Assembly: GCF_000015765.1 (NCBI RefSeq)
Contig: NC_008942.1
Span: 449,921 to 513,920, forward strand
DNA from: Methanocorpusculum labreanum Z
Lineage (GTDB): Archaea; Halobacteriota; Methanomicrobia; Methanomicrobiales; Methanocorpusculaceae
Direction: 5' to 3'
DNA length: 64,000 nucleotides
Shown: in pieces, positions 38,290 through 38,905 of the stretch
Position numbering within the stretch: the first letter of the stretch is position 1
Layout: each line of letters opens with the position of its first letter
Notes under the pieces: generated by a model
Told to the model about the DNA's origin: nothing
The model's input: only the letters and a program-made list of their open reading frames with translations
The model's database searches: none
Made by a program: the position numbers and the translations under genes

Positions 38290-38905
38290 CTACACCTCAA
38301 AATCTCCACAACTTCCACGCGAAAACCACCATTTCGATTCCAAAATGACCCTTCACCCATCAAAATCGACCCTCTCCACACGCACAAAAACCACATCCCA
38401 AACACAAAAGAAGACCATTCCTGCCGTATTTCCCCCCAAACACACTCATCCTATATTAAATAATAACCTGGACGTCCAGCAAAAACGATAACCCCGGAGA
38501 GACTACGTCCGTCCGTAAGTAAATACGGACGGAAAAAAATCCTCATCAATCACTTTTTTTTTAGACGTCTAGTTGTATTATTATTATTTTATGTACAGTA
38601 CAGACGAGAGAGAGAGAGAGAGAGAGAGAGAGATCGAACCAAAAACAAAAACAAAAATATGTGATATTTAAGCTTTTCCGACCGTAAGGACGTAGTCGAA
38701 AGGGAGTCATCGTTTTTCCTGGACGTCCACGTGCATAATTTATATACTATGAACACACCTGACTGAAAATACGCCGAATACTTCCGATTTCAATTTTTCA
38801 CCACCGAAAATAATCACAAAAATTTGATCAAAACTGATCGCCGAAGACCCAAAATGGAATCGAAATACCTCTCTGCGAGTGGAAACTCATCGATTTTTGC
38901 ACATG
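38290..38905. repeat. Large imperfect palindrome with two inward-facing promoter-like arms
   Basis: Left and right arms align in inverted orientation about an axis near 38598. Matches include ATTTCGATTCCA (38331 left, 38866 right), GCGTATTT/GCCGTATTT, a TATA-like CTATATTAAATAATA (38451-38465) against AGTATATAAATTATG (38734-38748, minus strand), the palindrome TGGACGTCCA (38469-38478 and 38720-38729), AAAAACGAT and GACTACGTCC. A third related palindrome, TAGACGTCTA, is at 38562-38571. Each arm thus reads TATA box, operator-like palindrome, conserved leader. The left arm continues into a 9-bp stem CCGTCCGTA/TACGGACGG (38509-38532). No protein is encoded; two short RNAs or a decayed element are possible. 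Confidence 0.65.
38606..38633. repeat. GA dinucleotide microsatellite
   Basis: About fourteen GA units in a row, at the symmetry axis of the large palindrome. Uninterrupted dinucleotide tracts of this length are rare in compact archaeal genomes and are prone to slippage. Confidence 0.9.

What the first reader, a model, noticed from the sequence alone, without database searches (positions are those of the whole stretch)
38290..38905. Large imperfect palindrome with two inward-facing promoter-like arms and shared GACGTC palindromes
Arms of about 300 bp align in inverted orientation about an axis near 38598. Each has a TATA-like box (38451 and 38748), then TGGACGTCCA, AAAAACGAT and GACTACGTCC in the same order and spacing. 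A third related palindrome (TAGACGTCTA, 38562) lies between. No protein gene is present. This could be two convergent small RNAs under one regulator, a replication-related structure beside rfcS, or remnants of an inverted-repeat element.
Basis: partly seen in the sequence, partly recalled or inferred. Interest (0 to 1): 0.62.

Follow-up and report, generated by a model that had tools for sequence, protein, structure and literature searches.

The report
Dispersed twin-promoter element in Methanocorpusculum
The stretch is one copy of a previously undescribed 570-base non-coding DNA element that sits at several places in the genomes of a small group of methane-making archaea, with two face-to-face promoters guarded by matching palindromes, probably the control region of a small mobile gene cluster; what it does has not been tested.

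Summary
Window 38313-38885 is one copy of a dispersed, non-coding, ~550-575 bp element. The genome (1,804,962 bp, the published size of Methanocorpusculum labreanum Z) holds six copies of its core, four of them with the full arms. Five further genomes of the genus hold clear copies, a sixth has diverged ones, and none was found in 16 genomes of other genera. Nearly every recognisable copy keeps two convergent arms. In the complete form each arm has phased A/T tracts, a ~22-bp upstream box, an archaeal TATA box, a palindrome just before the expected start site, an A-tract with GAT, and a period-4 stretch. A third palindrome with an A-tract lies at the centre. The palindrome differs between copies (GGCGCC, GACGTC, CACGTG and others), but sites within one copy mostly change together. 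Box, promoter-palindrome pair and a central 12-mer are essentially confined to the elements. All eight close copies of a gene cluster with small DNA-binding-like proteins and an HNH nuclease lie 1-2 kb from a copy; this copy has no cluster. Best reading: an orphan control region of a small mobile cluster, with two repressible, convergent small-RNA genes. Transcription and regulator are inferred. The rfcS/replication reading is not supported.

The parts
38313..38885 (.). complete element (573 bp) bounded by short inverted repeats TTCCACGCGAAAA / TGCGAGTGGAAA
   Evidence: alignment of 16 full-length copies, most 548-564 bp between the ends
38313..38431 (+). left outer arm with A/T tracts phased at about 10.5-10.8 bp, ending in the upstream box (~38409-38431)
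   Evidence: periodicity of AAA/TTT; outer arm found only in the four complete elements of this genome
38452..38459 (+). TATA box of arm A
   Evidence: TATA conserved in the complete arms, 26-29 bases before the A-tract
38469..38478 (+). palindrome 1 (operator-like), TGGACGTCCA, between TATA box and expected start
38480..38489 (+). A-tract plus GAT (CAAAAACGAT); expected start of RNA-A lies here by TATA spacing
   Evidence: A-tract and GA(T) nearly invariant in 37 arms; start site inferred
38486..38562 (+). predicted RNA-A (~75-80 nt), ending in the T9 run
   Evidence: inferred from TATA spacing and T-run; not measured
38508..38533 (+). perfect 10-bp hairpin TCCGTCCGTA/TACGGACGGA in RNA-A
   Evidence: folding z = -5.05 for this copy, family mean -1.4
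38542..38562 (+). CTCATCAATCAC + T9, most conserved stretch of the family
   Evidence: the 12-mer occurs 6 times in the genome, once per element
38562..38571 (.). palindrome 3 (central), TAGACGTCTA, preceded by the T-run: an inverted copy of the operator/A-tract unit
38573..38604 (.). A+T-rich stretch ending in GTACAGTACAGA
   Evidence: conserved in the alignment of copies
38606..38633 (+). (GA)14 dinucleotide repeat, length varies between copies
38640..38715 (-). predicted RNA-B (~70-75 nt), read from the minus strand, ending in T-rich TTTTTGTTTTTGTTTTTGG
   Evidence: inferred from TATA spacing and T-runs; not measured
38709..38719 (-). A-tract plus GAT of arm B
38720..38729 (-). palindrome 2 (operator-like), TGGACGTCCA
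38739..38746 (-). TATA box of arm B
38767..38885 (-). right outer arm: upstream box AAATACGCCGAATACTTCCGATTT (38767-38790) and phased A/T tracts
   Evidence: box found only in elements in this genome; periodicity

Best explanation
This is an orphan copy of the control region of a small mobile gene cluster of Methanocorpusculum. The region holds two convergent promoters that would make two short RNAs (about 70-80 nt) with related 5' ends and different 3' ends. A dedicated DNA-binding protein, probably one of the small ribbon-helix-helix-like proteins encoded beside some copies, would bind the palindrome/A-tract units at both promoters and at the centre and repress both. Copies with different palindromes would then answer to different regulators, as in heteroimmune mobile elements. 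Shown: the multi-copy nature, the conserved convergent architecture, element-restricted motifs, correlated palindromes and association with the gene cluster. Inferred: transcription, repression, the identity of the regulator and mobility.
For: Dispersed family: 3 further full and 2 core-only copies in this genome, 6 other genomes of the genus with DNA matches, 0 of 16 other-genus genomes. Most arm matches fall into convergent pairs about 280 bp apart. TATA box, palindrome and A-tract-GAT keep their spacing (TATA to A-tract 26-29) although the palindrome changes class. Palindromes within an element resemble each other more than between elements (8-base similarity arm-arm 7.65 vs 6.0 +/- 0.34 permuted, maximum 7.05; arm-centre 7.25 vs 6.0 +/- 0.29, maximum 6.8). 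Motifs are element-restricted: 12-mer 6 of 6, TATAWA-N10-GGCGCC 6 of 7, upstream box 5 of 5. All 8 copies of the close HNH cluster lie 1-2 kb from an element, with order p52-p121-p84-HNH-ZnR-p165-HTH66-p163, and an 81-aa gene on the other side of the core in four of them. The exposed positions of the putative beta-strand of p52 change with operator class (FTMYI/FSLYV/FTIYI beside tetramer-repeat elements, FNLTI beside GGCGCC elements).
Against: No transcript data. RNA-B does not fold better than shuffles (mean z -0.15) and RNA-A only modestly (-1.44). The ribbon-helix-helix assignment rests on pattern only: no Pfam, PHROGs or PDB sequence match for p52, p121 or p81, and similarity to CopG is marginal for one p52 type and nil for the other. 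The window copy and other solo copies have no cluster nearby, so a regulator for the GACGTC class is unknown. No target-site duplication. The palindrome covariation rests on few independent classes. Core-only elements lack a clear TATA box.
Confidence: 0.45

Rival explanations
1. A DNA-level site rather than RNA genes: the three operator/A-tract units, curved arms, A+T-rich centre and GA repeat form a nucleoprotein structure (partition-, origin- or recombination-type site) of a mobile element, and the promoters are incidental or serve only to open the DNA.
For: Three copies of one composite unit in orientation +,-,-; A/T tracts phased at about 10.5 bp; period-4 arrays beside core-only copies; RNA-structure evidence weak, and in some core-only copies the antisense of arm B folds better than the sense; core-only copies lack a canonical TATA box.
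Against: TATA boxes with constant spacing to the palindromes are kept in the complete copies; a T9 run follows the most conserved stretch on the sense strand of arm A; six to ten copies per genome is unusual for an origin or partition site; no replication or partition gene recognised in the cluster.
Confidence: 0.25
2. A non-autonomous (MITE-like) mobile repeat: short terminal inverted repeats moved in trans, with the promoters as passengers.
For: Dispersed copies of fairly constant length with terminal inverted repeats; related genomes carry outer-arm-only or core-deleted versions (L055, L058, L064, L068).
Against: No target-site duplication in the copies examined; no transposable elements annotated in this genome (PMC2686161); many sites shared between species with flanks of 85% identity or so, so long resident; strong internal constraint on architecture is not expected of a passenger.
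Confidence: 0.15
3. Homing target: the dispersed element is the cleavage or homology site by which the HNH-endonuclease cluster spreads from element to element by gene conversion.
For: 8 of 8 close HNH genes next to an element and 0 of 5 of the next subfamily with a core nearby; at related sites one species has element plus cluster and the other element alone or with a cluster remnant (L036/L043, L037/L041); at one shared site the palindrome class has been replaced (L035/L054: flanks 86%, element 71%).
Against: No cleavage site known; the distance between element and cluster varies (about 0.2-0.7 kb); does not by itself explain promoters and operators.
Confidence: 0.1
4. Replication-related structure tied to rfcS.
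For: This copy is next to rfcS.
Against: Other copies are next to unrelated genes; rfcS in related genomes lacks it; GC skew in the window has no sustained switch here.
Confidence: 0.02

Closest known systems
Immunity/control regions of temperate mobile elements (several equal operators overlapping opposed promoters, heteroimmune classes)
   Same: opposed promoters, three like operator sites per region, operator sequence differing between co-resident elements
   Different: promoters point inwards at each other, no repressor gene inside the element, many solo copies, archaeal TATA promoters
Copy-control loci with a small ribbon-helix-helix repressor and an antisense RNA (CopG/pMV158 type; from general knowledge)
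   Same: a very small CopG-length protein encoded beside some copies, palindromic operators at a promoter, small RNAs proposed
   Different: no Rep protein or plasmid found; the two RNAs are alike at the 5' end rather than complementary; RHH assignment not confirmed
MITEs / BIME-type intergenic repeats
   Same: dispersed, non-coding, short terminal inverted repeats
   Different: no target-site duplication, no partner transposase, regulated-promoter architecture conserved at 25-30% divergence
Ribbon-helix-helix partition sites (ParG-type short repeat arrays; from general knowledge)
   Same: arrays of short repeats beside core-only copies, small putative RHH proteins next door
   Different: no ParA-like ATPase recognised in the cluster; several chromosomal copies

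Membership tests
Any Rfam RNA family | match at or above the family's gathering score | tested here: not met
   only a tRNA in the window at gathering; two sub-threshold chance matches in the element region
MITE (non-autonomous DNA transposon) | terminal inverted repeats | tested here: met
   TTCCACTCG-type ends in inverted orientation
MITE (non-autonomous DNA transposon) | target-site duplication | tested here: not met
   no direct match of 4 or more bases at the ends of the copies whose ends could be located (9 of 16)
MITE (non-autonomous DNA transposon) | ends shared with an autonomous transposon | tested here: not met
   the outer arm matches only the four elements in this genome; paper lists 0 transposable elements (PMC2686161)
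Regulated archaeal promoter pair | TATA box at fixed distance from expected start, with an operator in between | tested here: met
   26-29 bases from TATA to the A-tract in the complete arms, palindrome between
Regulated archaeal promoter pair | transcript with mapped start | not testable with these tools
   no expression data available
CopG-type ribbon-helix-helix repressor (the proposed regulator p52) | recognisable RHH domain | tested here: inconclusive
   pattern fits by eye; no Pfam or PDB sequence match; CopG alignment z = 3.3 for one type, -0.7 for the other
CopG-type ribbon-helix-helix repressor (the proposed regulator p52) | binds the palindrome | not testable with these tools
   needs a binding assay; only a correlation of putative beta-strand residues with operator class
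Conserved structured small RNA | structure more stable than shuffled sequence across the family | tested here: inconclusive
   arm A mean z -1.44, arm B -0.15
Virus or plasmid region | same DNA in known phages, plasmids or viral contigs | tested here: not met
   no match in plasmids or phages; viral-contig pattern hits only matched the short pattern

The most novel reading that the evidence does not exclude
A genus-specific archaeal regulatory element family in which two facing promoters make a pair of related small RNAs under three like operators, with each copy switching to a new operator class as a unit, so that one genome carries several mutually insulated copies, some still linked to the nuclease cluster that spreads them.
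Probability: 0.3. Interest if true: 0.75.

Novelty: new variant of a known kind. Interest (0 to 1): 0.52.

Why it matters
If right, it is a compact, self-contained control device in archaea, found in cultured methanogens (M. labreanum, M. parvum), with several variants in one genome that differ in operator sequence. That makes it a natural series for testing how operator and regulator specificity change together, and a possible new pair of archaeal small RNAs. It also gives a handle on how a genome without annotated transposons accumulates dispersed intergenic repeats.

Tried and rejected
Rfam scan: no family. Peptide in the conserved stretch: short reading frames differ between copies when read by eye, so no conserved peptide. 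Exact antisense seed: GTGATTGATGAG occurs only in the elements in this genome, so there is no perfect 12-base target elsewhere. C/D-box RNA: CGATGA-like boxes are not kept. Origin beside rfcS: not kept in relatives, no skew switch. Virus or plasmid: no match. Wider spread: a collection-wide pattern scan found Methanocorpusculum records, one contig filed as Clostridia that carries the element, and short chance matches. HNH loci of the more distant subfamilies and of element-free species have no core. Solved-structure search for the small proteins: nothing. A clean empty site for this copy could not be shown: the rfcS upstream region differs too much between species. The whole genome was not available as a file.

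Full report
Identity. The window lies at G000:C1:449921-513920 of a single-contig genome of 1,804,962 bp, the published size of Methanocorpusculum labreanum Z (PMC3035222).

Observation. The inverted arrangement is real and far beyond chance (score 44 versus 13.5 +/- 2.1, maximum 24 in shuffles). The named motifs are at the stated places.

It is a dispersed element. The 616-bp stretch matches five other places in the same genome: three over nearly full length (70-74% identity) and two over the core. Six other genomes of the genus have DNA matches (one of them, G017, only weak ones) and none of 16 genomes from other genera. A sequence model of one arm finds 11 arm matches in this genome, 20 in G016, 13 in G012, 12 in G003 and G014, and 3 in G020; most fall into plus/minus pairs about 280 bp apart, that is, facing promoters. 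The most conserved 12-mer (CTCATCAATCAC / GTGATTGATGAG) occurs exactly six times in the genome, once per element.

Anatomy, from the alignments. From outside in: short terminal inverted repeat; 100-150 bp with A/T tracts in helical phase (best period 10.4-11.0 in nearly all arms, though individual significance varies); a box near ATACGCCGAATCCTGCCGATTT; TATA box; 10-bp palindrome; A-tract and GAT; C- or G-run; GACTACSTMC stretch with 4-base periodicity and hairpin potential; then on side A the conserved CTCATCAATCAC-T9 followed by the third palindrome, an A+T-rich stretch ending in GTACAGTACAGA, and (GA)n; on side B a T-rich end. In this genome the box, the outer arms and the promoter-palindrome arrangement are confined to the elements, with one stray pattern match.

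Palindrome classes. GGCGCC is commonest; the window copy has GACGTC; others have CACGTG, TATACGTGTA, ATACATGT or tetramer repeats. Within an element the sites are more alike than between elements. The permutation treats copies as independent although most are GGCGCC, so the effective sample is about five classes. At one genomic site shared by two species the flanks are 86% identical but the element only 71%, and the class differs (L035 versus L054). One copy (L027/L052) is a hybrid of two classes.

Linked genes. Three of the six elements of this genome lie 1-2 kb from a cluster encoding, in order, p52, p121, p84, an HNH endonuclease (PF13392, E = 5e-6), a zinc-ribbon-like protein, p165, a 61-66 aa helix-turn-helix-like protein and p163. 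Over the genus all eight close HNH copies (74% identity or more) are beside an element (coordinates), while five members of the next subfamily (47-54% identity) have no core in the fetched surroundings. In four loci, and in the two diverged G017 loci, an 81-aa gene lies on the other side of the core. p52, p121 and p81 look like ribbon-helix-helix proteins by pattern, but no library confirms this. The p52 strand residues that would face DNA differ with operator class. This is suggestive, with two independent classes only. No cluster protein is encoded in the 64-kb window: the window copy is an orphan.

Mechanism. Expected start sites, from TATA spacing, fall in the A-tracts, so the palindromes lie between TATA box and start, where a bound protein would block initiation. 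That gives two short RNAs with similar 5' parts under one regulator with a third site at the centre. Folding supports a hairpin strongly for this copy (z = -5.05), modestly for arm A over the family (-1.44) and not for arm B (-0.15), so a DNA-level role is the main rival.

Not supported. The rfcS link: five related genomes of the clade have rfcS without the element. Transposon membership: no target-site duplication where the ends could be located. Known RNA family: none. Paper searches found no description of this element; only open-access text was searched.

Surroundings. The element sits in a 1.55-kb intergenic region with two larger inverted repeats around it (37818-37873/39000-39055, 91% over 56 nt; 38021-38061/38977-39017, 83% over 41 nt), centred elsewhere and so probably separate repeats.

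Noticed in passing
window 37818-37873 and 39000-39055: 56-nt inverted repeat, 91% complementary, 1.1 kb apart, flanking the element; a second pair at 38021-38061 / 38977-39017.
   Followed up: partly
window 29426-29445, 37961-37980, 39130-39149: Exact CGCAAATCAAAGATTTGCTC three times in the window (0 expected); the same motif flanks other elements, so it looks like a separate dispersed intergenic repeat.
   Followed up: no
L044 (G016) arm B, about 5150-5200: Long tandem run of GGTA (about 18 units) inside arm B of one copy, suggesting slippage in the period-4 stretch.
   Followed up: no
L036 9074-9562, L037 9294-9782, L038 9106-9594, L077, L078: p163, a 163-aa protein at the end of the cluster, is 90-100% identical in five copies in this genome, much more uniform than its neighbours, and has no family match.
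   Followed up: partly
L055 5210-5264, L058 5454-5614, L064, L068: Related genomes carry copies reduced to the outer arms, with the promoter core deleted or absent.
   Followed up: partly
L093 3082-3528 (JAQVQU010000129.1): A contig filed in a Clostridia MAG carries most of a complete element; probably a misassigned methanogen contig.
   Followed up: no
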